This document shows, one piece after another, positions 4,942 to 36,992 of a stretch of DNA of 64,000 nucleotides. This DNA is from Desulfococcaceae bacterium HSG9. Lineage in GTDB: Bacteria; Desulfobacterota; Desulfobacteria; Desulfobacterales; JAUCGF01. The notes below the pieces were generated by a model, which was not told where the DNA came from, ran no database searches, and saw nothing but the letters and a program-made list of their open reading frames with translations. Both the position numbers and the translations under genes were made by a program. The stretch lies in contig JAUCGF010000075.1 of the NCBI GenBank assembly GCA_030378005.1, forward strand, positions 1-64,000, read 5' to 3'. Position 1 is the stretch's first letter. The number at the start of each line of letters is the position of its first letter.

Positions 4942-4957
4942 TTTACACAATCCCTAA

Positions 4958-8860: not shown

Positions 8861-11125
8861 TTACAACCGTGAAGATGACAGAAGAATCGGCGTAATCAAT
8901 AAATCCACAACCAGCGCGCACAGCATTGTCAATACCGCCAGAAATCCGAAATGGACAAGCGGCTGCATATCAGACAACATAATCGCTCCAAACCCTGAAG
9001 CCAGGCCCAGCGATGTCGCCACTATCGGTCGTATTTCATGAAGGATAGTGGCTTCGATGGCCATGTTTTGATTTTTCAAACGGCGCATTTCCCTGTAATA
9101 GCGGGTCAAAAAATGAACCGTGTCATCCACCGCGATTCCAATCGCAATCACCGCCACCATAGATGTCCCCGTATTTAAAAAAATCTTTGACGCTCCCATC
9201 AGCCCAAATAAAAGCGTGATGGGAAGTATTGTTGTGAACACCCCCAGCGCACCGGCTTTGATATTGGCAAACAACAAGGACATCAGCACAAACACCACAA
9301 TGAGTGTAAAGCTCAGGGAAATAACCTGGCCGGCAGACAGCGTATCCGCAGCCGCCATACTGATAATACTCTCCCCGGTGATGCGATAGTCAAAGCGCTG
9401 ATTCAGATTTTGTTCGATAAAGCCGGACGCCTCCGCGACAAGCTCTTTGAGACCCCTGGAAGAACTTACATTGTGCCGGACAACAATATTCACTTCACTG
9501 GCGTTACGGGTGATGAAGGGGGCGATTACATCCGGCGGTAAAACAAACAAATATTGAGCGATCACCCTGGAGGATTCAGGAATACGTTCATAGGCTGTAT
9601 CCCCGTTGTGCATTTCACGGTAGATCAACTGGAGATAATCAACGATAGAGGCGGTCTGATCACACCAATCTCTTTGTCGAAGAAAAGACTGAATGTCGGC
9701 AATCCGGGTTAGATGTTCAGGTTGATTGAACGTATTCGCGGCGTCGCTTTTGATATGAATGAAAAAAGTTTGGGCGCCGGCCATTTTCTCATGAAGCTTT
9801 TGGCTGAAAACCCTAATGGGTGACGAAGGCTTGAACATCCCCACAAAATCGTTATCGACTTTGATGTTGCAAGAAAACAGCCCGATAATCAGGATACCCC
9901 CTGTCAGCACTCCGAATGTTGGCCGCTTGTATCCGCGGACAAGCACGATGATTTTTTGCGTCAGGCCGCTGAAAAAGGCATTCACGAATCCGGAGGCGGA
10001 GCCGGTGTCACAGCCGGCCTGTTCAGGGCCGAGCCATTTGAAATAAACCGGAGCCGCCAGAAATGTGACTGCCGGGTTCGCCAGCAAGCCGAACGCGGAC
10101 ACCATGCCGAATTGTTTCAAGATCACTATTTTGTTGAGCGTAATGGCCAGAAATCCCAAAAATGTTGTCAACGCTGTTAAAAAGAGCGCAAAGCCACTTT
10201 CCCGAATCATATAGGGGACGGCACCAGTTCGCGTACCGGTTTCACGAACGCCCGCCAAATATGATGAAAACAGGTGCATGTCCTCGGTCGAGCCGACCAC
10301 GATCAACAAAGCGGGAATAATAGCCGTGAACAAATTCATGGGAATGCCGGACAATCCCATAAATCCCAGCGTCCAGATAATACTCAGCCCCGAGGTGATT
10401 ATGATAAAGCCTAACAGCCTTACGGAGCGCCAAATCACAAAAATGACCAGGGAAGACAGGAAAAAGGCCAGGGGGATCACCGTGCGTTGATCGTTCAATT
10501 GCCCTTCGTAGCACATCCGGGTTGTATAGGGTGTGCCGAGTTGGAAGACCTCTTCAACATGGGATGAGAGCGTGGCCATAAGCTCATCGACCTGCTGCGA
10601 AAAGATCGTCTCGTCATCCGGGCCGGTGTGCTCATTTAAAAACAGATTGAACGTCATGGCGTCGCCGTCGCCGGACACAAGGCGGCCAACCGCTATCGGA
10701 TTCCGAAGGGCATCCGCCTTGATCTCCCGCGCCGCGTTCAGGGTTTCCGGCAAATTTTCAATAAACGGCTCCAAAAGGAGAACCCCTTTTTCCCCGTTCA
10801 TATTGACAATCGAAAACAAGCTGTCCACACGATTTACATTGGGGATATTCTCCAACGCGGTCTGAAAATCATTCAGGAGTGTAAGCATCTCCGGTGTAAA
10901 GAGCCGGCTGTCCCGGACATACACCACGGTGATTTTATCCGAGCCGAATGTTTTCACTGTTTCGTCATATACTTGCCTGGCCGGGTCTCCTTTGATCCAA
11001 AGGGTCTGAATGGAAACATCCACTGTAATGACCGAAACAAAATATCCGAAACACAGCGTCATACCTGACAATAAAATCACCACGAGTTTTGAATGGCGAT
11101 AACTCCAAAACATCAGTTTTTGCAT
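8861..11125 (-). CDS. RND superfamily transporter (MMPL/HpnN-like), paralogue 1
   Basis: 754 residues with the duplicated RND layout: one N-terminal membrane helix, a periplasmic loop of about 180 residues, five helices, then the same again. Conserved acidic membrane motifs are VGSTEDMHLFSSY (first half) and IAVDDTVHFLTRY (second half), where RND proteins place the proton-relay aspartates. A GGAG ribosome site precedes the ATG. It follows a LolA-like gene on the same strand by 130 bp. Small RND proteins of this kind paired with LolA-like proteins are thought to move lipids or hydrophobic molecules through the envelope; the substrate is unknown. It is closely related to the proteins at 12713-15004 and 17992-20727. 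Confidence 0.85.
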   Translation of the reverse strand: MQKLMFWSYRHSKLVVILLSGMTLCFGYFVSVITVDVSIQTLWIKGDPARQVYDETVKTFGSDKITVVYVRDSRLFTPEMLTLLNDFQTALENIPNVNRVDSLFSIVNMNGEKGVLLLEPFIENLPETLNAAREIKADALRNPIAVGRLVSGDGDAMTFNLFLNEHTGPDDETIFSQQVDELMATLSSHVEEVFQLGTPYTTRMCYEGQLNDQRTVIPLAFFLSSLVIFVIWRSVRLLGFIIITSGLSIIWTLGFMGLSGIPMNLFTAIIPALLIVVGSTEDMHLFSSYLAGVRETGTRTGAVPYMIRESGFALFLTALTTFLGFLAITLNKIVILKQFGMVSAFGLLANPAVTFLAAPVYFKWLGPEQAGCDTGSASGFVNAFFSGLTQKIIVLVRGYKRPTFGVLTGGILIIGLFSCNIKVDNDFVGMFKPSSPIRVFSQKLHEKMAGAQTFFIHIKSDAANTFNQPEHLTRIADIQSFLRQRDWCDQTASIVDYLQLIYREMHNGDTAYERIPESSRVIAQYLFVLPPDVIAPFITRNASEVNIVVRHNVSSSRGLKELVAEASGFIEQNLNQRFDYRITGESIISMAAADTLSAGQVISLSFTLIVVFVLMSLLFANIKAGALGVFTTILPITLLFGLMGASKIFLNTGTSMVAVIAIGIAVDDTVHFLTRYYREMRRLKNQNMAIEATILHEIRPIVATSLGLASGFGAIMLSDMQPLVHFGFLAVLTMLCALVVDLLITPILLSSSRL

Positions 11126-11255: not shown

Positions 11256-12116
11256 TTAATTCCGGGAAAAAGCCGTATCCTTGTTCGGGACATCCACTTC
11301 GATTTTCCGACAAAGCAAAACAGTGCTTGTATTTTGGCGAATCCGTTTCCACGTGATCTTGAAACTCCGGTGCAACGGGCCTTTGATCTGCCTGATATCC
11401 TCAAATAACACCGTTTTGACATGCCGGACATTGGGGTTGGGGGAATAAAACTCTATTTTCAATGGATAATAATGGACTTGGTCCACCCAGATGATCAGTT
11501 TCCCATAGGGGCTGTCATCTGCTTTTTCTTTCAAGCCATATGTAGTCGAGACGGGATTTATTTTCCCCACATCCGCATCAGAAGGGGCGTCCCAATCGCC
11601 GTTGCATACGCTATTAGTAGCAATTTTCCAGGCTTTCCGGCCGAAAAGGAAATCCTCCCCAATAAGTTTGAATTCATGGCCATCCAGATTGTCGAGCCGA
11701 ATATCCTCAAAGGCGATATCCGGTCCTATGAACTGACGTATTGTGCTATTGCCGGAGATTTGTTTGAATGACCTGTCTGCGGGCAAATACATCCATTGTT
11801 CGTCCGGCTTTCCTTTTTTCTGGCCGTGGGTCAATAGCTCCACCCCGCGGATGTTCGCGGGCGAAAGGTACTGCACCGAAGTTAAATAGCGCGAAGTGTT
11901 TTCTCCATCATTTTTCGAGAAATGGATACGGATTGATTGCCGGATTTCCTGCCCGTTGCGGTCGATCAGTGTCATGGCGATTTCATTGAGTTCATTATCG
12001 ACCGTGTGTCTTTTTCTCATTTCCTCAATGATGCTATTACCGGTTAATTCTTCAGCCACACCCGGGAATGGGATCCCGCAAAAAACTGCCATAATCAAAA
12101 TAAGTCTTAACCACAT
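11256..12116 (-). CDS. LolA-like periplasmic outer-membrane lipoprotein-sorting protein, copy 1
   Basis: 286 residues with a clear signal peptide (cleavage near GVAEE, residue 21) and a strong AAAGGAGGT ribosome site. The mature part resembles the LolA-like beta fold family PF17131: MTLIDRNGQE, the YLSPANIRGVELL segment, DEQWMYLPADRSFKQI, then VLFEDIRQIKGPLHRSFKITWKRIR. It is a paralogue of the protein at 16849-17643 and likewise precedes an RND transporter. It probably carries a lipophilic substrate in the periplasm for the adjacent transporter. It is somewhat longer than its paralogue because of an insertion near residues 170-200. Confidence 0.8.
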   Translation of the reverse strand: MWLRLILIMAVFCGIPFPGVAEELTGNSIIEEMRKRHTVDNELNEIAMTLIDRNGQEIRQSIRIHFSKNDGENTSRYLTSVQYLSPANIRGVELLTHGQKKGKPDEQWMYLPADRSFKQISGNSTIRQFIGPDIAFEDIRLDNLDGHEFKLIGEDFLFGRKAWKIATNSVCNGDWDAPSDADVGKINPVSTTYGLKEKADDSPYGKLIIWVDQVHYYPLKIEFYSPNPNVRHVKTVLFEDIRQIKGPLHRSFKITWKRIRQNTSTVLLCRKIEVDVPNKDTAFSRN

Positions 12117-12238
12117 GTGAACCTCCTTTCTTAAATCATCAATTTGTTATTTATAATTAACCTACATTCAGTAGATGGAAAAGTTCCTTAAAAGTTCCGT
12201 AGGAACGGCATGTTTGTAGCAGATGTCAGCCCCGCACC

Positions 12239-12563: not shown

Positions 12564-12598
12564 TTATATCATTAATCTGAACCGCATGTCAACCTCCT
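12564..12598 (-). pseudogene. Remnant of a LolA-like gene start
   Basis: On the minus strand an AGGAGGTT ribosome site (12591-12598) is followed by ATG at 12587 and the codons for MRFRLMI, then a stop at 12564. The ribosome site, spacing and first residues parallel the starts of the lolA-like genes at 12116 (MWLRLIL) and 16849 (MWFRIFL). The remainder is missing and replaced by dispersed repeats. This suggests that one LolA-RND unit was deleted between the two minus-strand RND genes. Confidence 0.5.
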
Positions 12599-12621
12599 AT
12601 TTTCAATTTTTCCGGTATTTT

Positions 12622-12654
12622 AGAAATCGGATTTTTTAGAAAAACCCGATTTCT
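12622..12654. repeat. 33-bp palindromic repeat, copy 2
   Basis: The same 33-bp element as at 1783-1815, with centre TAG and one mismatch between the 15-bp arms. It lies downstream of the RND gene ending at 12713. Confidence 0.85.
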
Positions 12655-12712
12655 TGAATAATTCCATACCTGAAAATATATGTCCAAGTACTTAAGTGTT
12701 GCAATTTGATGT

Positions 12713-15004
12713 CTAAAAAATCGAAAAACTTTTGCCCAGGCGCTTATTTGTCATCACCTTGACAGATGACAAGAGAATCGGCGTGATAAGCAGATCTGTC
12801 ACCATGGCAACCAGCATCACAAATGCCGACAAAAAGCCGAAATGGACAAGTGGCTTCAGGCTGGACAGCATGAGCACTCCAAACCCCAGGGCGAGTCCCA
12901 ATGATGTCGCCACGACAGGCCTGATTTCATGGCGGATACAGGCTTCCATGGCCTGATTCCTGTCCTGCAACCGGAGCATTTCCGCGTGGTAGCGGACCAT
13001 AAAATGAATGGTGTCATCCACTGCGATCCCAATCGTAACCACCGCCACCATCACGGTCCCCAAATGCAAAAAAATACCAAACAACCCCATGACCCCAAAC
13101 ATCAGGACGGTGGGCAACACATTCGGAATCAGAGACAATGCCCCGGCTTTGACATTGCCAAACAGAAGGGACATGAGCAGAAACACTGCGATCAGCATGA
13201 CGGACAGTGAAAATAGCTGCCTGATAAACAGCGTATCGCCTGCCGCTACGGTGAGAATGCTTTCCCCGGTGATACGAAAATCAAAGCGAGGGGTCAGGTG
13301 CTGCCCGATCATGTCTCCGGTCTGTGCGACCAGTTCTTTGAGGGCATGCGACGAACTTACGTTATGCCGAATAACGATGGCGACTTCACGGGCGTCATTG
13401 GTGATGAAAGAAGCGATTGCACTGGGAGGAAGAATCACCAGGTATTGTGCGATCAGGTCAGGGGATTCGGGAATGCGCGCGTAAGCGTCATCTCCGTCGT
13501 GCATTGCGCGGTTGATCAACTCAAGATAATTCACGATGGAAGCAGTCGCGTCACACCAGCCGCTCTGCTCCAGAGACGCCTGGATGCCGGCAATACTGGC
13601 CAAATGCTCCGGTTGTATGAAGCTGTCCGCGGTTCTGCTCCTGATATGAATGACAAAGGTTTGCACTCCCGCAAGTTCCTCATGCAGTTGTCGGCTGAAC
13701 CGCCTGATTGGCGATGATTCCTCGAACGACCCTATCAAATCGCCGTCGGCATTGATATTGAAGGAAAAGACCCCTACGAGAAGGATGCCTCCGACCAGCG
13801 AGCCGAAGATGCGCCATTTGTAAGCACGAATCAGACGTGTTATTGTTCCGGCAATGTTGCTGAACACGGTATTGACGGATCCGGTGCCGCAGGTGCCGGC
13901 ATGCCGCGGCCCAAAATACCTGAGCCATGCCGGGGCAGTTAAAAAGGTGATCAAAGGATTGACGAATAAGCCAAAGGCGCACACAATGCCGAATTGTTGC
14001 ACAATCAAATACTTGTTGAGTGAAATCGCCAGAAATCCTAAAAATGTGGTCAGAGCGGTCAGGAAGAGGGCCAGGCCGCTTTTCTCAATCATGTGACGGA
14101 TGGCATCGGGGCGTGTCCCGGTTTTCCGAATACCCGCCAAATATTCCGAAAACAAGTGTACATCCTCGGTTGAGCCGACCGCGATCAATAAAGCAGGCAT
14201 AATAGACGTAAATCTGGTTATGGGAAATCCGGCCAGTCCCATAAAGCCCAGGGTCCAAAGAATACTCAGACCTGATGTGAGCATCGTCATGCCTGCCAGG
14301 CTGAATGACCGCCAGATCACTAATGAGAGCAGAGTGTACAGTACGAATGCCAGGGGAACCAGCCGGCGTTGATCGCGCATTTGGCCCTCAAACAACACCC
14401 GCTTTGTATAAGGCTCGCCTAATTGGAAAACTTTTTCCATATAAGGCGAGATCGTGGAAATGGCTTCGTCCACTTGAATAGAGAAGCGCTCTTCATTTTG
14501 GCCGATGTCCTCATCCATAAACAGGTTGAAAGCTATGGCGGAGCCGTCGCGGGACACCAGATTGTCGAGCACCAACGAATTGCGGAGTGCATCGGCCTTG
14601 ATCGCCTGCGCCTCTTCAAGAGTATCCGGGACTTCATTCACAAACGGATTCACATAAAGCACCCCCTCTTCCCCTTTCAGATTGGGAATGGAAAACAGGC
14701 TGTCCACCCTGTAAACACCGGGGATTTTTTCCAACACGTTCTGAAACTCATTCAGCCGTGCCAAAACCTCAGGCGTAAAGAGCCGGCTGTTCTTGACAAA
14801 GACCACGGTGATTTTGCAGGACCCGAATGTCTCCAGCGTGTCATCGTACAGTGCCTTGACCGGATCATCCTTGCTCCATCGCATCAGCGTCATCTCCTCC
14901 GACGGAATTGCCGGAATATAACAGGCGAAAAATAGGGTGGCGCCAAGCAGCAAAACGATGACATGCACGGGATGGTCATAACTCCACAACATCAGTTTTT
15001 TCAT
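12713..15004 (-). CDS. RND superfamily transporter (MMPL/HpnN-like), paralogue 2
   Basis: 763 residues with the same architecture as the other two RND proteins of the window: a membrane helix near residues 10-32, a periplasmic domain with ITVVFVKNSRLFTPEVL, the motif VGSTEDVHLFSEY, a second periplasmic domain and IAVDDTIHFMVRY near the C-terminus. It lacks the cyclic-nucleotide domain of paralogue 3. The ribosome site is weak. It is transcribed divergently from the beta-barrel gene at 15467, and the lolA-like gene one would expect next to it is reduced to a remnant downstream. Function inferred: export or intermembrane movement of a hydrophobic compound. Confidence 0.83.
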   Translation of the reverse strand: MKKLMLWSYDHPVHVIVLLLGATLFFACYIPAIPSEEMTLMRWSKDDPVKALYDDTLETFGSCKITVVFVKNSRLFTPEVLARLNEFQNVLEKIPGVYRVDSLFSIPNLKGEEGVLYVNPFVNEVPDTLEEAQAIKADALRNSLVLDNLVSRDGSAIAFNLFMDEDIGQNEERFSIQVDEAISTISPYMEKVFQLGEPYTKRVLFEGQMRDQRRLVPLAFVLYTLLSLVIWRSFSLAGMTMLTSGLSILWTLGFMGLAGFPITRFTSIMPALLIAVGSTEDVHLFSEYLAGIRKTGTRPDAIRHMIEKSGLALFLTALTTFLGFLAISLNKYLIVQQFGIVCAFGLFVNPLITFLTAPAWLRYFGPRHAGTCGTGSVNTVFSNIAGTITRLIRAYKWRIFGSLVGGILLVGVFSFNINADGDLIGSFEESSPIRRFSRQLHEELAGVQTFVIHIRSRTADSFIQPEHLASIAGIQASLEQSGWCDATASIVNYLELINRAMHDGDDAYARIPESPDLIAQYLVILPPSAIASFITNDAREVAIVIRHNVSSSHALKELVAQTGDMIGQHLTPRFDFRITGESILTVAAGDTLFIRQLFSLSVMLIAVFLLMSLLFGNVKAGALSLIPNVLPTVLMFGVMGLFGIFLHLGTVMVAVVTIGIAVDDTIHFMVRYHAEMLRLQDRNQAMEACIRHEIRPVVATSLGLALGFGVLMLSSLKPLVHFGFLSAFVMLVAMVTDLLITPILLSSVKVMTNKRLGKSFSIF

Positions 15005-15466
15005 ACGAAAATGTCAGGCGGTTTTTGACCCGCCTGTCCCAATTCTGCTTTCGACAAAAAGAGCTATCAGTTTCTTACATAAAGAAATAAAAGAGTTGGA
15101 GAAATCACAGAGAGATGGCGCGGACTTGCTATTCCGCAATACACTACGCTAAAACTCTAACACTACGCTAAAACTCTAAAATAATACATGTTAATTTATT
15201 ATTTTAGAGTTGTATTTGGTGGAAGTCAAGAGACAATTATGGGAGTGCGATTAGATTTGCGGCAAAATTAGCCAAAATGCACAAACAGAAAGGATATGAT
15301 GCGCCAATATGGACGAAAGAGATTGGCTGGTTGGTTGAAGTGAACGGTTCCGGTAAAAAACAACTTGCATTTTAACTGTTACTTTGTTACATATTTGGTA
15401 ATTTCAAATTATGGCTTACACATACGAATTAAAGTATGGAATGTACCTTTTCGGAGAATAAATCTT
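15005..15466. other. Divergent intergenic region with an inverted and a direct repeat
   Basis: This 462-bp spacer holds two direct copies of ACACTACGCTAAAACTCTAA near 15140-15178. It also has a perfect 15-bp inverted repeat (AACTCTAAAATAATA at 15172-15186, complement at 15197-15211, 10-base spacer). A short open stretch at 15277-15375 is treated separately. Both flanking genes point away, so promoters must lie here, but none is convincing by eye. Confidence 0.6.
15277..15375 (+). pseudogene. Short coding remnant, unrecognised
   Basis: The frame stays open from a stop near 15205 to the TAA at 15373. Its composition looks coding (segment KQKGYDAPIWTKEIGWLVE, then a lysine-rich end). The only ATG gives 32 residues. 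No ribosome site or family is recognised. It may be the 3' end of a displaced gene. Very uncertain. Confidence 0.2.
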
Positions 15467-16825
15467 TTGAAATCTGCGGCCATTCATCAATATAGCAAGA
15501 TAGCGATATGGTTTTTTTTGCTCATTATCCATCTGACATCTTTGCCCCCTGCTTTTGGAGACGAAAACACACAATCAAGCATCTGGACCTCTTTTCAGGA
15601 AAACTGGTCGCCCAAGCTTGATATTGATGTGTGGGGCGCTTACTACTACGAAGATTCAACCCTGGAACCCGAAGAAGTCGGCCTTACAGGAAACGCCACC
15701 CTGGAATTGAGCAAAGACCTGGGACGCGGCTTGATGTTGCGCATTGATCCCAAGGTGAATGCAGCCCCCTTGAATACCGGAGGCGTCCGACTTTTTGTGG
15801 AAGATCAGGAGGACAAACCGATATTTACGCTGAATGAGGCCTTTTTAGCCTGGTATGGGGAAACGACCGAGATCGAGGTTGGAAAAAAAATATACTCATG
15901 GAAAGTTGCGGACGGATTAAGCCCCGTTGATACGTTGAATCCGACCGATATCACTGAACCGTTGGATGTGGATAAAATCGGGATTCCTTCGGTATCTGTT
16001 TTAAAAATGTTTGAACTTGTCAATATTCAAGCCGTGTTCCTCCCTGTTTTGGTTGCCGACCGGTCACCGCCGGATACGAGCCGCTGGACCGGTGGAGCCT
16101 CGTATGTAAGTCAATCCGAACAAACGACGATAACAAACAGGGAACTGCCAGATAACTGGTTTGAAAAAGTGTCGGTCGCATCGAAGATCAGTTCGAGCAC
16201 CCTTTTGCCCGGATGGGATCTGGCTGCAATATACCGGTACGGTTACAGCTCCCGAGGAGTGGTTCAAATCGATTTCGATGAACTTTCGTCGTCTGCGGTG
16301 GTCAAGAATATGGAATATCCGGCCTACAACCTCTTCGGATTCACTTTTTCCACCGCATGGAGCGACATTGTAGGCCATGGTGAAGCCGCATTGTATGACA
16401 CCCGGGATAATGCAAAAGGGGAAGACTATCTATCCTATATTTTGGGTGTGACTTACACTAACTACAGATGGATGGCCGATCTATTCGATGAAATCGGATT
16501 TATTATGGAATATGCCGGCGAGGCGGTCCTGAAAGAAAGAGAGGCGGACAGCAGCTATTTGGACCCAAGCACGAGTCGCGGGCTGTCCGACAATATTATC
16601 GGCAGCATTGATGTCAAGATCAATGAAGACCATATAGTGGAGACCGCTTTCACCTATAATGTTACAAATGAAGATTCTGTTTTTGATTTCAAAGGCCGAT
16701 CACGCTTGAATGACCATCTGCAAGTTGTTTACGGCTATCAAATATTATCCGGGGATTCTGCTTCCTTTTTGGGACAGTGGGATGCCAATGACAGGTTTTA
16801 TATGGAAATGGCAATAACTTATTAA
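15467..16825 (+). CDS. Outer-membrane beta-barrel protein (DUF1302-like), module partner of LolA/RND genes
   Basis: About 452 residues from the TTG at 15467, preceded by GGAG; an earlier in-frame TTG at 15365 has no ribosome site and would put an odd 34-residue extension before the signal peptide. The signal sequence (IAIWFFLLIIHLTSLPPAFG) is followed by alternating hydrophobic/polar strands, many aromatics and a C-terminal strand ending in tyrosine (FYMEMAITY), as expected for a transmembrane barrel. DUF1302-like proteins are often encoded with LolA-like and RND/MMPL genes, as here. The lolA-like gene follows after 23 bp, so they form an operon. Likely the outer-membrane part of the transport system. 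Confidence 0.7.
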   Translation: MKSAAIHQYSKIAIWFFLLIIHLTSLPPAFGDENTQSSIWTSFQENWSPKLDIDVWGAYYYEDSTLEPEEVGLTGNATLELSKDLGRGLMLRIDPKVNAAPLNTGGVRLFVEDQEDKPIFTLNEAFLAWYGETTEIEVGKKIYSWKVADGLSPVDTLNPTDITEPLDVDKIGIPSVSVLKMFELVNIQAVFLPVLVADRSPPDTSRWTGGASYVSQSEQTTITNRELPDNWFEKVSVASKISSSTLLPGWDLAAIYRYGYSSRGVVQIDFDELSSSAVVKNMEYPAYNLFGFTFSTAWSDIVGHGEAALYDTRDNAKGEDYLSYILGVTYTNYRWMADLFDEIGFIMEYAGEAVLKEREADSSYLDPSTSRGLSDNIIGSIDVKINEDHIVETAFTYNVTNEDSVFDFKGRSRLNDHLQVVYGYQILSGDSASFLGQWDANDRFYMEMAITY

Positions 16826-16848: not shown

Positions 16849-17643
16849 ATGTGGTTCAGAATTTTTTTGATTGTTGCAGCGGTTTGGGGGTTCTCGTTAT
16901 CGGGTGCGGTTGCGGAAGAATTAACCGGTCGGAGTATCCTTGAGGAACAGGAAAAAAGACATGTAAGCGATAATGAATCAGGTGAAATCGATATGACGTT
17001 GATTGACCGCAAGGGCAAAGAAAGCCAGCGGCAGATGAGAGTTTTTCACTTAAAAAAAGATGAACAAAGCAAGATTTTGATTCAATTTCTTGCGCCCGCC
17101 AATATAAAAGGGACAGGGCTTCTGACCTGGGAACAGGGCGAAGGCAAGGAAGACGATCAGTGGCTGTATTTACCCGCAACCCGGTCAGTCAAACGAATCG
17201 CCGGCGGTGGCAAAAAAAATCAGTTCATGGGAACGGATCTCGCTTATGAAGACCTTCGGTTTGAAGATATGGACAGTCATAAATACACTCTTATGGGGGA
17301 AGAGACCGTTGCCGGCCGAAAATGCTGGAAAATCGAGTCTGTACCGGCCACGGAAGATGAAAAGAAGACCAGTGGCTATGGAAAACGGGTTATCTGGGTG
17401 GGCCAGGATAATTATTTTAACCAAAAAATAGACTATTATGACCACAATGGACGCCATGTTAAAACGACCTTATTTGAGGATATCAGACAGATGAAAGGCC
17501 AGTTGTATCGGCCCTTCAAGGTTACGGTGAAACGGATTCGCAAGAAAACGTCCACCATTTTGATTACCAAGAAAATTGAGTTGGATGCTCCGAAACAGGA
17601 TGTTATTTTTACCCAGAATTATTTGAAACGTCCGATCAAGTAG
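16849..17643 (+). CDS. LolA-like periplasmic outer-membrane lipoprotein-sorting protein, copy 2
   Basis: 264 residues with a signal peptide (cleavage near GAVAEE, residue 22) and an AAAGGAGGG ribosome site. Family features match PF17131: MTLIDRKGKE, IQFLAPANIKGTGLL, DDQWLYLPATRSVKRI, GTDLAYEDLRFEDMD, GRKCWKIE and TLFEDIRQMKGQLYRPF. It is a paralogue of the protein at 11256-12116. It sits between the beta-barrel gene and the RND-cNMP gene; the order barrel, periplasmic carrier, inner-membrane RND is consistent with one envelope-spanning pathway. Confidence 0.82.
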   Translation: MWFRIFLIVAAVWGFSLSGAVAEELTGRSILEEQEKRHVSDNESGEIDMTLIDRKGKESQRQMRVFHLKKDEQSKILIQFLAPANIKGTGLLTWEQGEGKEDDQWLYLPATRSVKRIAGGGKKNQFMGTDLAYEDLRFEDMDSHKYTLMGEETVAGRKCWKIESVPATEDEKKTSGYGKRVIWVGQDNYFNQKIDYYDHNGRHVKTTLFEDIRQMKGQLYRPFKVTVKRIRKKTSTILITKKIELDAPKQDVIFTQNYLKRPIK

Positions 17644-17991: not shown

Positions 17992-20727
17992 ATGCAAAAA
18001 CTAATGTTTTGGAGTTATAAACACCCAAAACTTGTCTTGGTTATATTGCTTGGCGTCACACTATTTTTCTCCTTTTTTATTCCGAAAATTCCGGTGGATG
18101 TTTCCGTCCAAATGTTTTGGAGCAAAGGCGACCCGGCCAAGCAATTGTACGACGATACTGTTGCGACATTCGGTTCGGATAAAATCACTGTGGTGTATAT
18201 CAAAGACAGCCACATTTTCACCCCGGAGATGCTGGCGCGGCTGAGTGATTTTCATTTTGCCCTGGACGGCCTTCCTGATGTTATTCGCGTGGACAGCCTG
18301 TTTTCCATTGCCAATCTCAAAGGGGAGGACGGCTTTCTCAACATAGAGCCGTTTTTTGAAAATATTCCGGAAACGATTGCGGCAGCCGAGACGATCAAAG
18401 CAGATGCTCTTAAAAATCCCATCGCGGTCAATAATATTGTGGCGAGCGACGGTTCGGCCATAACGTTCAATGTCTTTTTGGATGAGGGCGTCAGCCCTGA
18501 TGATGAAACGCAATTCTCTACACAAGTAGATGAAGTCATCGCCACAATCGCTTCCCATGTTGAACAGGTCTTTCAATTGGGTACACCCTATTCAACCCGG
18601 ATGTGTTATGAAGGACTCGTACACGATCAGCGCACGGTGGTTCCGCTGGCGTTTTTACTGTTTTCTCTGACTTCCTTAGTGATCTGGCGGTCTTTCAGCC
18701 TGCTCAGTCTGACCATCATCACTTCGGGTTTAAGTGTTATCTGGACGCTGGGCTTTATGGGATTGTTTAATATCCCCATGAATCTGTTTACGGCCATTAT
18801 TCCAGCCTTGCTGATCGTCGTCGGCTCCACTGAAGATATGCATCTGTTTTCAGAGTATCAGGCTGGGTTGCGTGAAACCGGAACGCGCACCGGCGCGGTC
18901 CCCTACATGATTCAGAGATCCGGCCTTGCCCTCATGCTGACCGCGTTGACCACGTTTTTGGGCTTTCTGGCAATTTCGCTGAATAAAATTTTAATTTTGA
19001 AGCAATTCGGCATCACCTGCGCGTTTGGTCTGATGGTAAACCCGCTGGTCACATTTCTGGCGGCGCCGGTTTTTCTCAGGTTTTTCGGGCCTCGAAGCGT
19101 CGTTGATTCCACCAGCCGGGCCTCTGAATTCGTAAATGCCCTTTTCACCGGGCTGGCTCGCAAAATTACCATTCTTAATCGCGCCTATAAATGGCAAGCC
19201 TTCGGTATCTTTACCGGAACCATCCTGATCGTCGGAATATTCACTTTCCAAATCAAAATCGACAACGATTTGGTGGGGGTTTTTAAGCCATCTTCACCGC
19301 TCAGGGTTTCCAGCAAGCAACTTCATGAGGAACTCGCTGGCGCTCAAACCTTCCTCATTCATATCAAAAGTGAAAACGCGAACGCTTTTAATCAGCCGGA
19401 AAATCTGGCTCAGATTGCGGCTATTCAGGCGTTTCTTCGACAGAGCAGTTGGTGTGACCTGACTGTCTCCATCGTGGATTATCTTAAATTAACTTCCCGT
19501 GAAATGCATGACGGAGATAAAGCCTTCAACAAAATTCCCGACTCTTCCGATCTCAGCGCCCAATATCTATTGATTCTGCCGGCAGATGAAATCACTTCTC
19601 TCATCACGGATGATGCCAGCGAGGTCAATATCATTGTCCGGCATAACGTGAGTTCCTCGCATGGCCTTAAAGAAATAGTCGCCCAGATAACCGACTTTAT
19701 CGAGGGCAATTTAAATCCGCGTTTTGAATGCCGCATAACCGGGGAAAGCATTATCAGCCTGACGGCAGCCGATACGCTGGTCACCGGTCAGGTGACTTCC
19801 CTGAGCTTTACGCTTGTTGTGGTGTTTCTGCTGATGTACGTGTTGTTCACCAATGTCAAAGCCGGAGTGCTGTCACTGGCCACGAATATGCTTCCCATCA
19901 TACTCTATTGCGGGCTGATGGGCGTTTTAGGGATTTTTTTGAACACTGGAACTTCCATGGTGGCGGTGATTGCCATCGGGATTGCGGTGGACGACACCGT
20001 TCATTTTATGACGCGGTATAGCAAGGAGATGCGCCGTTTGCAGAATCAAGACAAGGCCATTGAAGCCTGTATCCATCATTTAATCCGACCGACCATGGCA
20101 ACGTCTATCGGGCTGGCACTGGGATTCAGTGCAATTATGCTGTCCGACCTGCTTCCGCTGATTCATTTCGGATTTCTGGCGGCTTTGACGATCCTTGTCG
20201 CCCTGATGGCGGATCTGATTATCACACCGATTTTGTTGGCTTCCACCCAATTGCTGACACTATGGGACATGCTCACGTTAGAGTTGCAGCAAGCCGTGAT
20301 TTCCGAATCCCCCTTGTTTAAAAACCTGAAACGCTGGCAAATCAAAAAAGTGGTGCTGTTAGGCAAGATTATGTGCGCCGGAAAGGGCGACGCCCTTATT
20401 CGGCAAGGCGACCAGGGGCAAAGCATGTATCTCCTGTTGGAAGGCAGGGTGCGGGTTGAAGTCGGAGATGGCCCTGCCGATGTTTCAAAGCAGGTTTTAT
20501 ATCATTTCAATCCCGGCGAAGTGTTCGGTGAAATCGCACTCGTCAATCCCGGCCCCCGGACGGCTGATATTATAGCTACGGAGGATGTCTCCTATTTAGA
20601 GTTTGATTGGGACGGCATTGAACGCATCTTTCGTGTCTTTCCGCCCATAGCCGCACGCCTTTACCGCAATCTGGCTCTTATCCTGGGACAACGGCTCAGA
20701 GAAACAACCAAAAAAATGTTGGTGTAA
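17992..20727 (+). CDS. RND superfamily transporter fused to a C-terminal cyclic nucleotide-binding domain
   Basis: 911 residues. Residues 1-755 are an RND (MMPL-like) transporter with VGSTEDMHLFSEY and IAVDDTVHFMTRY in the two halves. After the last helix and a linker, residues about 775-905 form a cyclic nucleotide-binding domain of the CRP/CAP fold: GDALIRQGDQGQSMYLLLEGRVRVEV, then the phosphate-binding cassette FGEIALVNPGPRTADIIA. The transporter part is close to paralogues 1 and 2, which lack the added domain. The known role of such domains is to gate or tether a protein in response to cAMP or cGMP, so regulation of transport by a cyclic nucleotide is inferred. The 3' quarter recurs as a detached copy at 33836-34577. 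Confidence 0.87.
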   Translation: MQKLMFWSYKHPKLVLVILLGVTLFFSFFIPKIPVDVSVQMFWSKGDPAKQLYDDTVATFGSDKITVVYIKDSHIFTPEMLARLSDFHFALDGLPDVIRVDSLFSIANLKGEDGFLNIEPFFENIPETIAAAETIKADALKNPIAVNNIVASDGSAITFNVFLDEGVSPDDETQFSTQVDEVIATIASHVEQVFQLGTPYSTRMCYEGLVHDQRTVVPLAFLLFSLTSLVIWRSFSLLSLTIITSGLSVIWTLGFMGLFNIPMNLFTAIIPALLIVVGSTEDMHLFSEYQAGLRETGTRTGAVPYMIQRSGLALMLTALTTFLGFLAISLNKILILKQFGITCAFGLMVNPLVTFLAAPVFLRFFGPRSVVDSTSRASEFVNALFTGLARKITILNRAYKWQAFGIFTGTILIVGIFTFQIKIDNDLVGVFKPSSPLRVSSKQLHEELAGAQTFLIHIKSENANAFNQPENLAQIAAIQAFLRQSSWCDLTVSIVDYLKLTSREMHDGDKAFNKIPDSSDLSAQYLLILPADEITSLITDDASEVNIIVRHNVSSSHGLKEIVAQITDFIEGNLNPRFECRITGESIISLTAADTLVTGQVTSLSFTLVVVFLLMYVLFTNVKAGVLSLATNMLPIILYCGLMGVLGIFLNTGTSMVAVIAIGIAVDDTVHFMTRYSKEMRRLQNQDKAIEACIHHLIRPTMATSIGLALGFSAIMLSDLLPLIHFGFLAALTILVALMADLIITPILLASTQLLTLWDMLTLELQQAVISESPLFKNLKRWQIKKVVLLGKIMCAGKGDALIRQGDQGQSMYLLLEGRVRVEVGDGPADVSKQVLYHFNPGEVFGEIALVNPGPRTADIIATEDVSYLEFDWDGIERIFRVFPPIAARLYRNLALILGQRLRETTKKMLV

Positions 20728-20796
20728 GCAATGTCAGTAGATCGAAAAGTTTTATAAAATACTGGCAAATAGGGTGTTAACATTAAAAAGTAGGTT

Positions 20797-20864: not shown

Positions 20865-23800
20865 CTACAACGCCCCATTGGAGATATCAAAAAATCGCTC
20901 GAAGAATTGAGTAAGCCTGCTTAGGACGCTCTCTCGTTTTTGGGTTCGTTCACCCGTTTTACCAAACCTGGATACAGGTGGTAAAACCTTGGTGATAGCG
21001 GTACCGGTGGTTGCGATATGACCATCACGAAAAGCATTGTTCACAAAGGTGTAAGCGGCATCACGGTTAAGATTTTCATCTTTGATAATCTGATCAAGCT
21101 CATCAATTTTCCGCTTGTTGACAAATTTCTGCCAATCTTCATCAATATTTGCCCCTACATCAAGAGAGCTGATAAACTGGTCGATAAGCTCTTTCTTGTT
21201 ACGCAGCTCAACGCTTGAATCAATCGCCTTGTTGATATCAACCAAAATCTCCTTATCTTTGATATTTTCTTCGTGATACCGCTTAATCAGTGAGAGGATA
21301 TAGTCAATGTTGATCTCTATCTGCTTGATAAGCTCCATCTCAAACACCAGATCATCGTTGATGTTCTCTTTGTCCGCCTTATCGGTTTTGCGTAACTGGG
21401 TATAGAGATCAATGTAGGCGCTGTGATAATCCTGAACATCACGCTCGGTCAAAATCTCATTACCCGCGAATTCATCAAAAGTGGTCAAGATATTTTGCAT
21501 CCGCAAAATAGCGCCATAAAGCCGGATAAAATCCTTCTGGGCTTGTTCGCTGATAATTTGCTCACCCGCTGGATATTTTTCCAGCAACTCGTCAATCATG
21601 CTCTTGTAGCCTCGAACCTCTTTATCCTCATCCTGATAGCCGTTGTAGTACTCATCATACGATTTCAGCAGTACTATGCCGCCAGCCTCTTTATCACCAA
21701 ACAAGGCTATTGACTCGTTGGTGGTTTTTTCAAGATTGCGAAAGCAAACAATATTGCCAAATGTTTTAACGCTGTTCAGGATTCGGTTGGTGCGCGAATA
21801 GGCTTGCAGCAAACCGTGCAAGCGCAGGTTCTTATCCACCCACAGGGTATTCAAGGTGGTGGCATCAAAACCTGTCAAAAACATATTCACTACAATCATA
21901 ATATCCACTTCACGGTTTTTTACCCGCTCGCTCAAATCTTTGTAGTAGTTTTGAAATTTATCGGCTGATGTATCATAAGAGGTGCCAAACATAAGGTTAT
22001 AGTCGCTGATTGCACTGTCTAAAAAATCTCGTGAGCCGGCATCCAGGCCTGTCGTGTTTTCTGAGTTTTCATCATCAAGAAAACCGTCTGGTTCCTCGTT
22101 GGCATAACTAAAGATGGTGGCTATTTTTAGCTGCTTGTCACTGGGCACGCCCTCAAGTTGTTTTTTAAATTCAACATAATATTTTTTTGCGGTATCAATA
22201 GATGAAACAGCAAAAATTGAATTAAATCCCGACAGGCGAATTTTCTCCATGACCTTTTCAACTTTTCTCCGGTCTTTCGCGCTTACAATCTCATTGATAT
22301 TTTTTGTGACACTATGAACGTAAAACTTATTATTCCGTTTGGTTTTTTGGTCAAAATGTTCCCGGATATACCCCACAATATTGCTCAAGCGTTCAGCAGA
22401 TGAGAGCGCCGCCTCACGATCAATAGCGCTTACCTTCTTATCTTCGATATTCTCTTCCTCACGCATGGTGGATATGTAGTCCACTTTAAAGGGGAGAACA
22501 TTTTTGTCACTGATGGCATCAACAATGGTATAAGTGTGGAGCTTATCGCCAAAGGCCTGTTCGGTGGTTTTAAGATCCGCTCTGCCACCGGAGCTGGAAT
22601 TTTTCGCAAAAATCGGTGTGCCGGTAAATCCAAACAGGTGATAGTTTTTGAATGCTTTGGTGATGCCTGTGTGCATATCACCAAACTGGCTGCGGTGGCA
22701 CTCATCAAAGATAATCACAGTATGATCACTGAAAACCTTATGCCTTTTGTTTTTTTTGATAAAACGATCCAGCTTCTGGATGGTGGTAATGATAATTTTT
22801 GCGTCTGGGTTTTCAAGCTGTTTGGTGAGTATCCTGGTGCTGGTGTTGCTGTTCGCCGCCCCTTTTTCAAACTTGTCATATTCGCGCATGGTTTGATAAT
22901 CGAGATCTTTTCTGTCCACCACAAACAGTACCTTGTTGATATGGGACAGCCTGCTTGCCAGTTGTGCTGTTTTAAAGCTGGTCAGTGTTTTGCCCGATCC
23001 TGTGGTGTGCCAGATGTAACCACCCGCTTCTAATTTGCCCAAAGTTTTGGCATTGAAGCTGATCTCTATGCGGCTAAGAATCCGCTCGGTGGCAACGATC
23101 TGATAAGGTCGCATCACCATCAGCTCGTTATCTGCGGTAAATACGCAATAACGGATGATGATATTCAGCAGGGCATGTTTGCTAAAAAAGGTTTTGGCAA
23201 AGTCCATCAAATCGGTAATGGGTCTATTGGCGGCATCCGCCCACCAACTGGTAAACTCAAAACTGTTGCTGCTTTTTTTCCCTTTTTTTGTAGCAGATTT
23301 ACCGCTCTCTTTAATATGTCGAACACGGGTGGTATTGCTGTAATATTTGGTATGAGTGCCGTTAGAAATCACAAAGAGCTGCACAAACTCAAACAGCCCG
23401 CTATCGGCCCAAAAGCTCTCACGAGCGTAACGGTTAATCTGGTTAAATGCCTCGGTAATCGCCACCCCTCGGCGTTTCAGCTCAATATGCACCATGGGCA
23501 AACCATTCACCAGCACCGTTACATCGTAACGATTGGCGCGTTGGCCCGTATCAGTGGCGTATTGGTTGATCACCTGTAGCTGATTGTTGTGGATGTTTTT
23601 CTTGTCCAGCAGATAGATATTTTTGACCGTGCCATCTTCAAGGGTGAGGTTCTTGATGTGATCCTCGGCAATGGTGGTGGTTTTTTCAACAATGCTCTGG
23701 TTGGGGTTGGCAAGCTCGGTATTAAAAAACTGCTGCCACTCGCTTTGTGTAAATGAATAATTGTTGAGTTTTTCCAGCTGGATTCGCAGATTGCTTTCAA

Positions 23801-33557: not shown

Positions 33558-33845
33558 GTGGGCAACCGCATGATTCAACCGGTATTTATTGCTAAACAAG
33601 ACGGCAAAACACGAATGCTGTCAGGTGCATCAGAAATCGGATTTTTTGGAAAAATCCGATTTCTTAAATTGATTGAAAACAATGGGTTGTGGTTAAAACC
33701 GGTGGGCAACCGCATGATTCAACCGGTATTTATTGCTAAACAAGACGGCAAAACATAAATGCTGTCAGGTGCATCAGAAATCGGATTTTTTGGAAAACTT
33801 CGATTTCTTAAATTGCTTGAAAACAACGGCCTGATGACACCGTTC
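33558..33845. repeat. 144-bp tandem duplication holding the 33-bp palindrome (copies 3 and 4)
   Basis: Two nearly identical 144-bp units (33558-33701 and 33702 onward to about 33831). Each contains one copy of the AGAAATCGGATTTTT palindrome (33632-33664 perfect, 33776-33808 with mismatches). The first unit reads through in one frame because 144 is a multiple of three, but it does not look like a gene. The second unit abuts the RND gene fragment. Confidence 0.8.
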
Positions 33846-34577
33846 ATTTTATGACGCGGTATAGCAAGGAGATGCGCCGTTTGCAGAATCAGGACAAGGC
33901 CATTGAAGCCTGTATCCATCATTTAATCCGACCGACCATGGCAACGTCTATCGGGCTGGCACTGGGATTCAGTGCAATTATGCTGTCCGACCTGCTTCCG
34001 CTGGTGCATTTCGGATTTCTGGCGGCCTTGACGATCCTTGTCGCCCTGGTGGCGGATCTGATTATCACACCGATTTTGTTGGCTTCCACGCAATTGCTGA
34101 CACTATGGGACATGCTCACGTTAGAGTTGCAGCAAGCCGTGATTTCCGACTCCCCCCTGTTTCAAAACCTGAAACGCTGGCAAATCAAAAAAGTGGTGCT
34201 GCTGGGCAAGATTATGTGCGCCGGAAAGGGCGACGCCCTTATTCGGCAAGGCGACCAGGGGCAAAGCATGTATCTCCTGTTGGAAGGCAGGGTGCGGGTT
34301 GAAGTCGGAGATGGCCCTGCCGATGCTTCAAAGCAGGTTTTATATCATTTCAATCCCGGCGAAGTGTTCGGTGAAATCGCGCTCGTCAATCCCGGTCCCC
34401 GGACGGCTGATATTATTGCTACGGAAGATGTCTCCTATTTAGAGTTTGATTGGGACGGCATTGAACGCATCTTTCGTGTCTTTCCGCCCATAGCCGCACG
34501 CCTTTACCGCAATCTGGCTCTCATCCTGGGACAACGGCTCAGAGAGACAACCAAAAAAATGTTGGTGTAAGCAATGT
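33836..34577 (+). pseudogene. Detached copy of the 3' end of the RND-cNMP gene
   Basis: This 742-bp segment matches 19993-20734 at roughly 97 percent by eye, starting inside the second IAVDDTVHF motif and ending just after the stop. An open frame from the ATG at 33851 to 34570 would give 239 residues: the last membrane helices and the whole cyclic nucleotide-binding domain (FGEIALVNPGPRTADIIA intact). Most differences from the full gene are silent (the amino acid changes noticed are few, such as Ile to Val and Val to Ala), so the source was probably a diverged functional paralogue and decay is slight. No promoter or ribosome site is evident; most likely a truncated gene, though a small membrane cNMP protein cannot be excluded. 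Confidence 0.8.
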
Positions 34578-34643: not shown

Positions 34644-36992
34644 CTACTTTTTCGTCAGCGTATGCACGCCATCCCATATTTCACCTGGGGCAACCGGCGG
34701 ATTATCTTTGTATAACCGGCAACGCTCTATATAGACGCTGGAAGGGTTGATTTTTCCAGCCGGTGAGCGTTCAAGCTTGAGCGCCAGGGTAAACCCGTCA
34801 ATCGCTTCATCCCATTTCATCTCCAAGTAACAAGCCATTGCCTCGTCAAATAACTTAAAAAGTGTTGTTTCATCATCAGTCAGCTGACCTTTTTCGGCGC
34901 GGACCTCGTAAACTTTTACCGGTTCTGAGCGCCCCACAACGATGATGCAGTCGATAAAGCGGATTGCCATCATATCGCCCACGGTTCCGGTTTTCCCGTT
35001 TTCATCAGGGTTTTTGGAATTCAGGGTGTCTTCGCTTACCAATATGCCTACGCCATACTGTTTGCCGGCTTGTTCCAACCGTGATGCCAGGTTGACAGCG
35101 TCTCCGTTCATGGTGTATTCCATCCGAAATTCGCTTCCCATATTGCCAACCACGATTTCTCCGGTATTGACACCGATGCGTATGGTCATTTGCCCGATTG
35201 CATCGGGCCATTTTTTGCCGGGCGTCCATTCTTCAGGCGGAAGTTTTTTTATATTACGGTCAGGTTCTTGGGGAGATGTCTTTTCCTCTTGCCATTTCGC
35301 GCGCAACTCGATCTGCTTTTTTTGCATCACCACCGCAGTTTTACACGCCATCAACGCATGATCATCAAATTCAAGTGGTGCATTGAAAAAAGCGGCGATA
35401 CCGTCGCCCTCATATTTATCCAGCGTGCCTTTATGGTCTGCCAAAATATTGGTCATAGCGGAAAGATACTCGTTTAAAACCTCGACCAATTGTTCGGCGG
35501 TCAGTTTTTCACTGAAAGTGCTGAAACTGCTGATATCACTGAAAAAGGCGGTTATGTTGCGGGATTCGCCGCCAAGACGCGGCATGACATTTTTTTTATA
35601 CATCTCATCAATTACCGCAGGTGGGAGGTAACTCTTAAACGTGGCTTTGAGAAAACGCTTCTTTTTTTCGGAAATCCAGAATTTGAACAATGTGAGCAGG
35701 GAAAAATTCATCACCAGAGACAGGATAGGAAAAAGCGGTGAAATAAACATGCGCCATCGACCTAGCGCTAAAATGGAGCCATACCAAATCAATATGCCGC
35801 TAACAAGCGTCACTGGCAACACCCATAAGGCTTTCAAGCGCGTAATCAACAGGCCGGTGATAAAGGCGGTGAAAATGATTAAAATGATCTCAAGTCCCGG
35901 CACCCAATCCGGTTTAAAAAAATAATCACCGGCTAATACATTATCAACGATGGTAGCGTGCGCTTCAACGCCCGGGAACCAGGAATCAAGAGGAGTGGGT
36001 CGAAGATCATGAAGGCCGGCGGCGGATGTGCCTACAAACACGATTTTACCTGCCAGGCTCTGAGGCTCTAATTTATCTTTTAACACATCACTTGCGGATA
36101 TATAGGGAAACGTATGTTTCGGCCCCCTGAAATGCAACAGCAAACGGCCATTTTGATCAACCGGAATTGACAACTTGCCCAAACGCAGCGATTCAACTCC
36201 GCCGGATGACATTTTTAACGCGCCGAGCGGTTGGTCAAAAGCGGTCCATAAAGCCGCCAGTGCGAGGCTGGGATAAATCTTGCCTTTCCAAGTAAGCAGC
36301 AACGGCGTGCTGCGGAGGATGCCGTCTTCATCAGCGCCCGTGTTCACAAATCCGGAACTTGTCGCTTTTTCAGATAAAACCTGAATTGTTGACAAAACAC
36401 TTTGCGCCTCAAGGAGATAATCTCTGGCGTCAGCCGCGCCTGGTGTTTTAATTTCAGACAGTTTGAGCGGATGAAGAAATGGGTCGGCCGACTGTTGGGC
36501 GCTTTTATGAAAATAAAAATAATTGCCTAAAACAAACGGCCCTTTGGCGATAATATTGGCAAGAATGCGATCATTGTCTAACAGCTCATCGGGCAAACCG
36601 GTGAATTGAACATCAACCTCCAGTTCTTTTTTCAGGTTTTGCTTGAGCACACCTAAAGAGGTGCGATCCGCTTCGGCAAATAAGATATCCAGAGAGATCG
36701 CTTGGGCACCGGCGTTTTGAATTTTAACCAGTAATTGAGCCACCCGGTAGCGCGGCCAGGGCCATTGTCCGAATTCGCTCAGGCTGGCTTCATCAATATC
36801 AACGATACACGACATCCCGGTCGTTTGCGTGCTATGCACTTTTGATAGAAACACATCATATAATTTACGATCCAGATAGTTTAAAAAAGGGGGTTCGTAA
36901 TTGTACAAGAGTGCAATCGTGCCAGTGATAATAAGACAAACCAGAGGCAGCAGTAACGCCGTCCGAAATTTATAAATCAGTTTTTTTAACAT
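34644..36992 (-). CDS. CHASE2-domain class III adenylate cyclase
   Basis: 782 residues. An N-terminal membrane helix (ALLLPLVCLIITGTIALLY) is followed by an extracytoplasmic CHASE2 sensor (DIDEASLSEFGQWPWPRYRVAQLL, SLDILFAEADRTS, FVGTSAAGLHDLRPTPLD). Three more helices (about 375-460) and a cytoplasmic cyclase domain follow. The catalytic core shows both metal-binding aspartates (FFSDISSFS and YEGDGIAAFF), a lysine in DKYEGD and the NGDAVNLASRLE transition-state segment, matching adenylate cyclases. A GAGGA ribosome site precedes the ATG. It should make cAMP in response to an external signal. It converges on the cNMP-domain fragment 74 bp away, suggesting a link with the RND-cNMP transporter. 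Confidence 0.9.
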   Translation of the reverse strand: MLKKLIYKFRTALLLPLVCLIITGTIALLYNYEPPFLNYLDRKLYDVFLSKVHSTQTTGMSCIVDIDEASLSEFGQWPWPRYRVAQLLVKIQNAGAQAISLDILFAEADRTSLGVLKQNLKKELEVDVQFTGLPDELLDNDRILANIIAKGPFVLGNYFYFHKSAQQSADPFLHPLKLSEIKTPGAADARDYLLEAQSVLSTIQVLSEKATSSGFVNTGADEDGILRSTPLLLTWKGKIYPSLALAALWTAFDQPLGALKMSSGGVESLRLGKLSIPVDQNGRLLLHFRGPKHTFPYISASDVLKDKLEPQSLAGKIVFVGTSAAGLHDLRPTPLDSWFPGVEAHATIVDNVLAGDYFFKPDWVPGLEIILIIFTAFITGLLITRLKALWVLPVTLVSGILIWYGSILALGRWRMFISPLFPILSLVMNFSLLTLFKFWISEKKKRFLKATFKSYLPPAVIDEMYKKNVMPRLGGESRNITAFFSDISSFSTFSEKLTAEQLVEVLNEYLSAMTNILADHKGTLDKYEGDGIAAFFNAPLEFDDHALMACKTAVVMQKKQIELRAKWQEEKTSPQEPDRNIKKLPPEEWTPGKKWPDAIGQMTIRIGVNTGEIVVGNMGSEFRMEYTMNGDAVNLASRLEQAGKQYGVGILVSEDTLNSKNPDENGKTGTVGDMMAIRFIDCIIVVGRSEPVKVYEVRAEKGQLTDDETTLFKLFDEAMACYLEMKWDEAIDGFTLALKLERSPAGKINPSSVYIERCRLYKDNPPVAPGEIWDGVHTLTKK

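What the first reader, a model, noticed from the sequence alone, without database searches (positions are those of the whole stretch)
17992..20727. RND transporter fused to a cyclic nucleotide-binding domain
Two paralogues in the window have no such domain, so the fusion is specific to this copy. The phosphate-binding cassette FGEIAL...R.A looks intact. Few transporters of this size carry one; cAMP or cGMP control of envelope transport is implied.
Basis: partly seen in the sequence, partly recalled or inferred. Interest (0 to 1): 0.56.

Follow-up and report, generated by a model that had tools for sequence, protein, structure and literature searches.

The report
Lipid pump with cyclic-nucleotide switch
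A bacterial membrane pump of the lipid-exporting RND kind carries at its inner end a domain that normally binds cAMP or cGMP; the same fused protein, beside the same partner genes, occurs in many unrelated bacteria, which suggests that a cell signal directly controls lipid traffic to the outer envelope.

Summary
ORF 17992-20727 (911 aa) is an RND/MMPL transporter with a C-terminal cyclic nucleotide-binding (CNB) domain (aa 798-880) and an intact phosphate-binding cassette. Two corrections. (1) The fusion is not peculiar to this copy: I found 55 more fused ORFs across several phyla, and on the RND tree the two CNB-less window paralogues lie inside the fused clade, so they lost the domain. (2) The protein belongs to a conserved gene set: 42 of 55 loci have a LolA-like carrier gene beside it, mostly with either an outer-membrane beta-barrel gene (as in the window) or pqiABC. 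Best reading: a proton-driven pump that hands a lipid or other hydrophobe to a LolA-like carrier and an outer-membrane exit, gated from the cytoplasm by cAMP or cGMP. Ligand binding, gating and substrate are inferred, not shown. The cyclase near the window locus is no support: cyclase neighbours are not enriched (1 of 45 loci; 3 of 29 controls). Relatives carry CNB+GGDEF or a histidine kinase in the same C-terminal slot. Eight searches of the open-licence library gave no paper that I saw describing this fusion. New variant of a known kind.

The parts
17992..20727 (+). RND/MMPL transporter fused to a C-terminal cyclic nucleotide-binding domain (911 aa)
17992..20256 (+). RND core, aa 1-755, fold like MmpL3/4/5, HpnN, NPC1L1
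   Evidence: Foldseek hits; aligned range 3-755
20383..20631 (+). CNB domain, aa 798-880
   Evidence: PF00027; nearest solved sequences PKA-RII, PKG, SthK
20515..20568 (+). phosphate-binding cassette, aa 842-859 (GEVFGEIALVNPGPRTAD)
   Evidence: conservation
16849..17643 (+). LolA_like periplasmic carrier (264 aa)
   Evidence: PF17131 E 8.1e-57; LolA-like gene beside 42 of 55 other fusions
15365..16825 (+). predicted outer-membrane beta-barrel protein (true start uncertain, probably near 15470 or later)
   Evidence: related to the barrel downstream of the fusion in other species; model with about 20 strands, mean pLDDT 66; Foldseek hits are porins and AlgE
12713..15004 (-). RND paralogue that has lost the CNB
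11256..12116 (-). LolA_like paralogue
8861..11125 (-). RND paralogue that has lost the CNB (nearest relative of the fused copy, 68% identical)
33833..34577 (+). second copy of the 3' end of the fusion gene (TM tail and CNB), 97.4% identical to 19990-20734
34644..36992 (-). CHASE2 and class III nucleotide cyclase, catalytic part closest to CyaB adenylyl cyclase; functional link to the pump not shown
   Evidence: not enriched near fusions

Best explanation
The protein is an inner-membrane, proton-driven RND exporter of a lipid or other hydrophobic molecule. It passes its substrate to the co-encoded LolA-like periplasmic carrier (16849-17643), which delivers it to the outer-membrane barrel (15365-16825). 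The CNB domain hangs on the cytoplasmic end of the last transmembrane helix through a conserved short helix, and binding of cAMP or cGMP there switches the pump, much as CNB domains gate SthK/HCN channels or the exchanger SLC9C1. Shown here: architecture, conservation of the cassette, operon partners, RND fold. Inferred: cyclic nucleotide binding, direction and energy source of transport, substrate, sign of the control.
For: Domains over cut-off. Confident full-length model, pLDDT 86.8, pTM 0.79, whose core matches lipid and siderophore RND proteins MmpL3/4/5, HpnN and NPC1L1. Cassette Glu and Arg invariant in 70 of 70 rows across many phyla; channels without this Arg are insensitive to cyclic nucleotides (passage in PMC10620091). 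Closest solved CNB sequences are mostly cAMP/cGMP receptors. LolA-like gene within two genes of 42 of 55 fusions, with a barrel in 18 or pqi genes in 18; within 5 kb 38 of 45 against 0 of 29 control loci. LolA-like and RND proteins form a predicted lipid export route in the aryl polyene cluster (ApeL, ApeM; passages of PMC8253772) and are fused in TOL_3187 beside a porin (passages of PMC6304351). The genome has 26 class III cyclase matches, and 9 of 10 chosen genomes with the fusion have at least one.
Against: No binding or transport data exist. A CNB domain does not guarantee a cyclic nucleotide as ligand: trypanosome PKA responds to nucleosides (abstract start of PMC10959531 in the listing). 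Cyclase genes are not enriched beside the fusion: 1 of 45 loci against 3 of 29 controls. The window itself keeps two paralogues that do without the domain. 11 of 55 loci show no LolA, barrel or pqi neighbour, some because the flank is short. The protein scores below the curated cut-offs of the named RND transporter families it touches in NCBIfam, so the substrate cannot be read from a family name.
Confidence: 0.6

Rival explanations
1. The CNB domain binds some other ligand (nucleoside, other small molecule) or works only as a dimerisation or partner-docking module, so that no cyclic nucleotide controls the pump.
For: Such cases exist: trypanosome PKA binds nucleosides (listing); CNB folds without the Arg are insensitive. 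Position 857 after the Arg varies between T, S, G and V. No cyclase neighbour enrichment.
Against: E847 and R856 are invariant in 70 of 70 rows, the expected pattern if the phosphate of a cyclic nucleotide is bound. Nearest solved sequences are mostly cAMP/cGMP receptors.
Confidence: 0.2
2. The RND part is chiefly a sensor of envelope lipids that reports inward through whatever module occupies its C-terminal slot; the CNB is then a coupling or output element rather than a gate on transport.
For: Related proteins carry CNB+GGDEF (L031) or HisKA+HATPase_c (L036) at the same place after the same helix (alignment). A histidine kinase is an output module.
Against: In the close family the slot holds only a CNB, a typical input domain. 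The conserved transport partners (LolA-like, barrel, PqiABC) argue for flux. No cognate target for an output was found.
Confidence: 0.12
3. The CNB is a neutral passenger, retained by chance and on its way to loss, as in the two paralogues.
For: Both window paralogues have lost it.
Against: The domain persists across several phyla with invariant cassette residues. The two window copies of the 3' end differ mainly at silent sites (11 synonymous to 4 non-synonymous single changes; pS 0.063, pN 0.0072).
Confidence: 0.05
4. Assembly or frame artefact.
For: The genome is a draft in 197 contigs and the 3' end of the gene is duplicated in the window.
Against: Same full-length architecture in dozens of independent assemblies, including cultured strains by their record titles (Mariprofundus sp. 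EBB-1, Sulfurisoma sediminicola BSN1).
Confidence: 0.01

Closest known systems
MmpL3/4/5, HpnN and other lipid RND transporters (MMPL family)
   Same: RND fold, two MMPL halves; best structural matches
   Different: No CNB named in any listed entry. The sequence stays far below the HpnN and HAE3 cut-offs of NCBIfam.
Aryl polyene export module ApeL (LolA-like), ApeM (RND), ApeN
   Same: LolA-like carrier and RND pump encoded together for an outer-membrane lipid (passages of PMC8253772)
   Different: No CNB mentioned in the passages seen; LolB-like ApeN in place of a barrel or PqiABC; inside a biosynthetic cluster
TOL_3187/TOL_3188 of Thalassolituus oleivorans
   Same: MMPL and LolA-like parts with an adjacent porin (passages of PMC6304351)
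   Different: LolA fused to the RND, no CNB reported in the passages seen; induced on long-chain alkane
PqiABC (MCE-type envelope bridge)
   Same: pqiABC genes stand next to LolA-RND-CNB in Beta-, Gamma- and Zetaproteobacteria and one Desulfobacteraceae genome
   Different: In the window and its close relatives a barrel takes that place
SthK/HCN channels and SLC9C1
   Same: C-terminal CNB domain controls a membrane transport unit (PMC10620091 passages; SthK sequence match)
   Different: Unrelated membrane part
MFS transporters fused to CNB domains
   Same: Bacterial transporter with a CNB (one-line mention, PMC10710835)
   Different: Different transporter superfamily

Membership tests
RND superfamily, MMPL family (PF03176) | two MMPL halves above the curated cut-off | tested here: met
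   90.6 bits against 20.5, two stretches
RND superfamily, MMPL family (PF03176) | RND fold of the transporter | tested here: met
   model pLDDT 86.8; Foldseek E down to 3.6e-25 with MmpL proteins
RND superfamily, MMPL family (PF03176) | acidic proton-relay residues in TM4 and TM10 (recalled from MmpL3 work) | tested here: inconclusive
   acidic pairs are present (E281-D282, D667-D668; E281 and D667 at least 90% conserved in alignment A3); proton coupling itself not testable
HAE3 subfamily (TIGR00921) | curated score cut-off 351.9 bits | tested here: not met
   153.3 bits; only HAE3-like
HpnN hopanoid transporter (TIGR03480) | curated cut-off 751.85 bits | tested here: not met
   66.2 bits
Cyclic nucleotide-binding domain (PF00027) | profile score above cut-off | tested here: met
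   66.6 bits against 27.5
Cyclic nucleotide-binding domain (PF00027) | cassette Glu and Arg that hold ribose and phosphate | tested here: met
   E847, R856; invariant in 70 of 70 rows
Cyclic nucleotide-binding domain (PF00027) | binds cAMP or cGMP | not testable with these tools
   needs a binding assay
CRP/FNR transcription factors | DNA-binding helix-turn-helix after the CNB | tested here: not met
   no such domain in the Pfam scan; the protein ends about 30 aa after the CNB match

The most novel reading that the evidence does not exclude
This clade of lipid RND transporters is a plug-in chassis. One conserved helix after the last transmembrane segment takes a cyclic nucleotide switch, a CNB plus GGDEF unit, or a histidine kinase, so the same transporter couples envelope lipid flux to second-messenger or two-component signalling in both directions (gate and sensor).
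Probability: 0.17. Interest if true: 0.75.

Novelty: new variant of a known kind. Interest (0 to 1): 0.52.

Why it matters
Control of Gram-negative envelope lipid transport is, to my knowledge, mostly described at the level of transcription. A pump of lipid-transporter type with a built-in cAMP/cGMP receptor, kept next to LolA-like carriers and to either an outer-membrane barrel or PqiABC in many phyla, would be a direct post-translational link between second messengers and lipid traffic. It also gives PqiABC-type systems a candidate energised partner, and supplies a clean genetic test: one cassette Arg in a cultured host.

Tried and rejected
Cyclase next door as support: the CHASE2-cyclase at 34644-36992 ends 67 bp from the second copy of the CNB. 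I first took this as support for cAMP control, but cyclase neighbours are not enriched near fusions (1 of 45 loci, L066, against 3 of 29 control loci), and this genome has 26 cyclase matches. Dropped as evidence.

CNB remnants behind the two paralogues: none.

cAMP versus cGMP from sequence: R+1 is T in 40, S in 16, G in 3 and V in 1 of 60 rows. I recall that Thr there is linked to cGMP in PKG and Ser to cAMP in CRP, but this does not decide the ligand.

VIA-align of the full model was filled by RND chains, and the CNB part was barely tested there. Absence of CNB chains in that list means nothing.

A Pfam scan of further neighbours failed because one of my coordinate ranges contained stops; not repeated. 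AcrB-like matches (Z about 42-44) show only the shared fold.

Eight literature searches listed no paper that I saw describing an RND-CNB fusion. Domain databases may list the architecture; I could not look.

Full report
WHAT IS THERE. The open frame 17992-20727 encodes 911 aa. Pfam finds MMPL (E 1.2e-25, two stretches) and, at aa 798-880, cNMP_binding (E 1.9e-18; 66.6 bits against a cut-off of 27.5). The two other RND genes of the window, 8861-11125 and 12713-15004 (both minus strand), have MMPL only, and the DNA behind them holds no CNB remnant. NCBIfam places the protein near HAE3, actII and HpnN but far below each cut-off (153.3 against 351.9, 97.9 against 874.7 and 66.2 against 751.85 bits). 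I therefore call it HAE3-like or MMPL-type, not a member of a named transporter family.

STRUCTURE. AlphaFold2 with 39 aligned rows gives mean pLDDT 86.8 and pTM 0.79. Foldseek's best matches are mycobacterial MmpL5/4/3, then NPC1L1, HpnN, Dispatched and Patched; VIA-align covers residues 3-755 with RND chains. The CNB follows TM12 through a short helix that is recognisable across the family (for example TLWDML). RND termini face the cytoplasm (established knowledge), so the CNB would too.

THE CASSETTE. The window protein and 55 fused ORFs were aligned. G842, F845, G846, E847, R856 and A858 are identical in 56 of 56. One search pattern contained FGEI, so part of that constancy is built in; R856 was not in it. 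In a wider set (60 CNB rows and 10 rows of the longer CNB-plus-tail type) G846, E847 and R856 are present in 70 of 70, including 13 of 13 'CNB' rows that did not come from the pattern scan. The closest solved sequences include PKA-RII, PKG and the bacterial channel SthK. PMC10620091 (passages) states that channels lacking this Arg are insensitive to cyclic nucleotides. Against an easy conclusion, the CNB of trypanosome PKA answers to nucleosides (abstract start of PMC10959531, listing).

DISTRIBUTION. The protein search of the genome and 39 relatives found fused relatives at 47% (G024) and 34% identity (G034). 45 of these 48, plus 10 loci, gave an ORF covering RND and CNB. L047 is cut by the contig end, L084 is partial, and L085 was missed by my ORF picker and recovered. 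In the phylum search, 25 of 395 genomes have a listed match running through the CNB (two candidates scored per genome and the list truncated, so a lower bound).

ORIGIN. On a tree of the RND part alone (79 rows; 10 near-copies or cut rows were left out beforehand), CNB state needs 4 changes, and the window paralogues sit with the window fusion inside fused proteins. A careful tree of 27 rows agrees: the trio is 100/100, the pair of the fusion with 8861-11125 is 98/95, and the trio lies inside a 24-row clade whose other rows are all fused. Holding all fused rows together without the paralogues is rejected (p-AU 8.75e-15). So the CNB is ancestral in this clade and the paralogues lost it. Gene conversion among the three copies cannot be excluded, but would not change the ancestral state.

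PARTNERS. In the window, barrel (15365-16825), LolA_like (16849-17643) and RND-CNB follow one another on the plus strand, opposite RND-LolA_like-RND (8861-15004) on the minus strand. Among the 55 loci (not freed of near-copies, some with only 1.5 kb of flank), 18 have LolA-like and barrel, 18 LolA-like and pqi genes, 6 LolA-like only, 1 pqi only, 1 barrel only, and 11 none of these (rows). Within 5 kb of 45 fusions: LolA-like 38, PqiB 19, PqiA 18, PqiC 18, barrel 14, cyclase 1. Within 5 kb of 29 control loci: 0, 0, 0, 0, 0 and 3. PqiA, MlaD-type PqiB and LolA_like were confirmed by Pfam in G034. The barrel has no Pfam family at E 0.001. Its model has about 20 strands at a modest mean pLDDT of 66, and its Foldseek matches are outer-membrane porins and the alginate exporter AlgE.

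PRECEDENTS. The aryl polyene cluster lists a LolA-like chaperone (ApeL), an RND protein (ApeM) and a LolB-like protein (ApeN) as a predicted lipid export route (passages of PMC8253772). TOL_3187 of Thalassolituus joins MMPL and LolA-like parts and has a porin neighbour (passages of PMC6304351). PMC10710835 mentions MFS-CNBD fusions in one sentence (passage). In the passages seen of PMC12436622 and PMC13078400 no RND-CNB protein appears.

MECHANISM. The best-supported reading is a cyclic-nucleotide-gated RND exporter of a hydrophobic substrate, working through a LolA-like carrier with either an outer-membrane barrel or PqiABC. Architecture, conservation, partners and fold are shown. Ligand, gating, substrate and direction are inferred. 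The genome can make the signal: 26 class III cyclase matches and 28 CNB matches, and 9 of 10 chosen fusion genomes have class III cyclases. The cyclase at 34644-36992 is closest to CyaB. Its closeness to the CNB copy is not evidence, because cyclase neighbours are not enriched.

SIDE BRANCHES. More distant relatives carry extra or other modules in the same place: RND-CNB-GGDEF (L031 by Pfam; L032-L034 alike by alignment), lying near hyp, apbE-like and rimO-like genes by my reading of the translations (not scanned), and RND-HisKA-HATPase (L036). This supports seeing the C-terminal end as a regulatory slot and leaves open that the RND part also senses.

THE REPEAT. Bases 19990-20734 and 33833-34577 are 97.4% identical over 745 bp. 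They differ in 17 codons; of the single-base changes 11 are silent and 4 are not (pS 0.063, pN 0.0072). That looks like two alleles kept under selection and brought together by recombination, more than decay after a local duplication. The 13.1 kb between them hold a type I restriction system, a TIR-like protein and a TnpB-like gene by my reading of the translations.

NOVELTY. Both parts are well known. Eight searches of the open-licence library listed no paper that I saw on an RND-CNB fusion or on the LolA-RND-CNB-PqiABC gene set, but the library is partial and domain databases could not be consulted. I rate it a new variant of a known kind.

Noticed in passing
window 19990-20734 and 33833-34577: 745-bp direct repeat (97.4%) of the 3' end of the fusion gene flanks a 13.1-kb stretch with a type I restriction system, TIR-like and TnpB-like genes; the differences are mostly silent (pN/pS about 0.11), as if an island from a related strain had been recombined in. 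No integrase was noticed.
   Followed up: partly
window 1783, 12622, 33632 and the whole genome: Palindrome AGAAATCGGATTTTTTNGAAAAANCCGATTTCT is a REP-like repeat: 81 forward and 86 reverse matches (the site is nearly self-complementary, so strands overlap) with up to 2 mismatches, 0 in the control. Copies sit near the junction of the repeat (33.6 kb), just behind a CNB-less paralogue (12.6 kb), and in an array spaced 92 bp on contig C191.
   Followed up: partly
L031-L034: Distant relatives are RND-CNB-GGDEF proteins (Pfam for L031; GGDEF motif looks degenerate) in a similar gene setting across several families.
   Followed up: partly
L036:6762-9749: RND transporter fused to HisKA and HATPase_c (histidine kinase), 995 aa; L039 groups with it on the tree but was not scanned.
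   Followed up: partly
L060-L080, L086, L087 (many of them): pqiA-pqiB-pqiC-LolA_like-RND-CNB gene runs in Beta-, Gamma- and Zetaproteobacteria and one Desulfobacteraceae: an RND pump as a possible energised partner of PqiABC.
   Followed up: partly
L038:6716-7891: 391-aa protein with a C-terminal CNB and a weak N-terminal match to FeeM N-acyl amino acid synthase (23.8 bits, below the cut-off of 27).
   Followed up: no
L051, L052, L057, L071: Fusion proteins of about 1010 aa in Syntrophus-like bacteria with about 100 extra residues in the N-terminal part.
   Followed up: no
window 1885-8657 and 20865-26651: Two apparent type I restriction-modification gene sets in one 64-kb window (by reading the translations, not scanned).
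   Followed up: no
window 48939-53426: 1495-aa pilus-biogenesis-like protein with a long Thr/Pro-rich low-complexity stretch near its start (by reading the translation).
   Followed up: no
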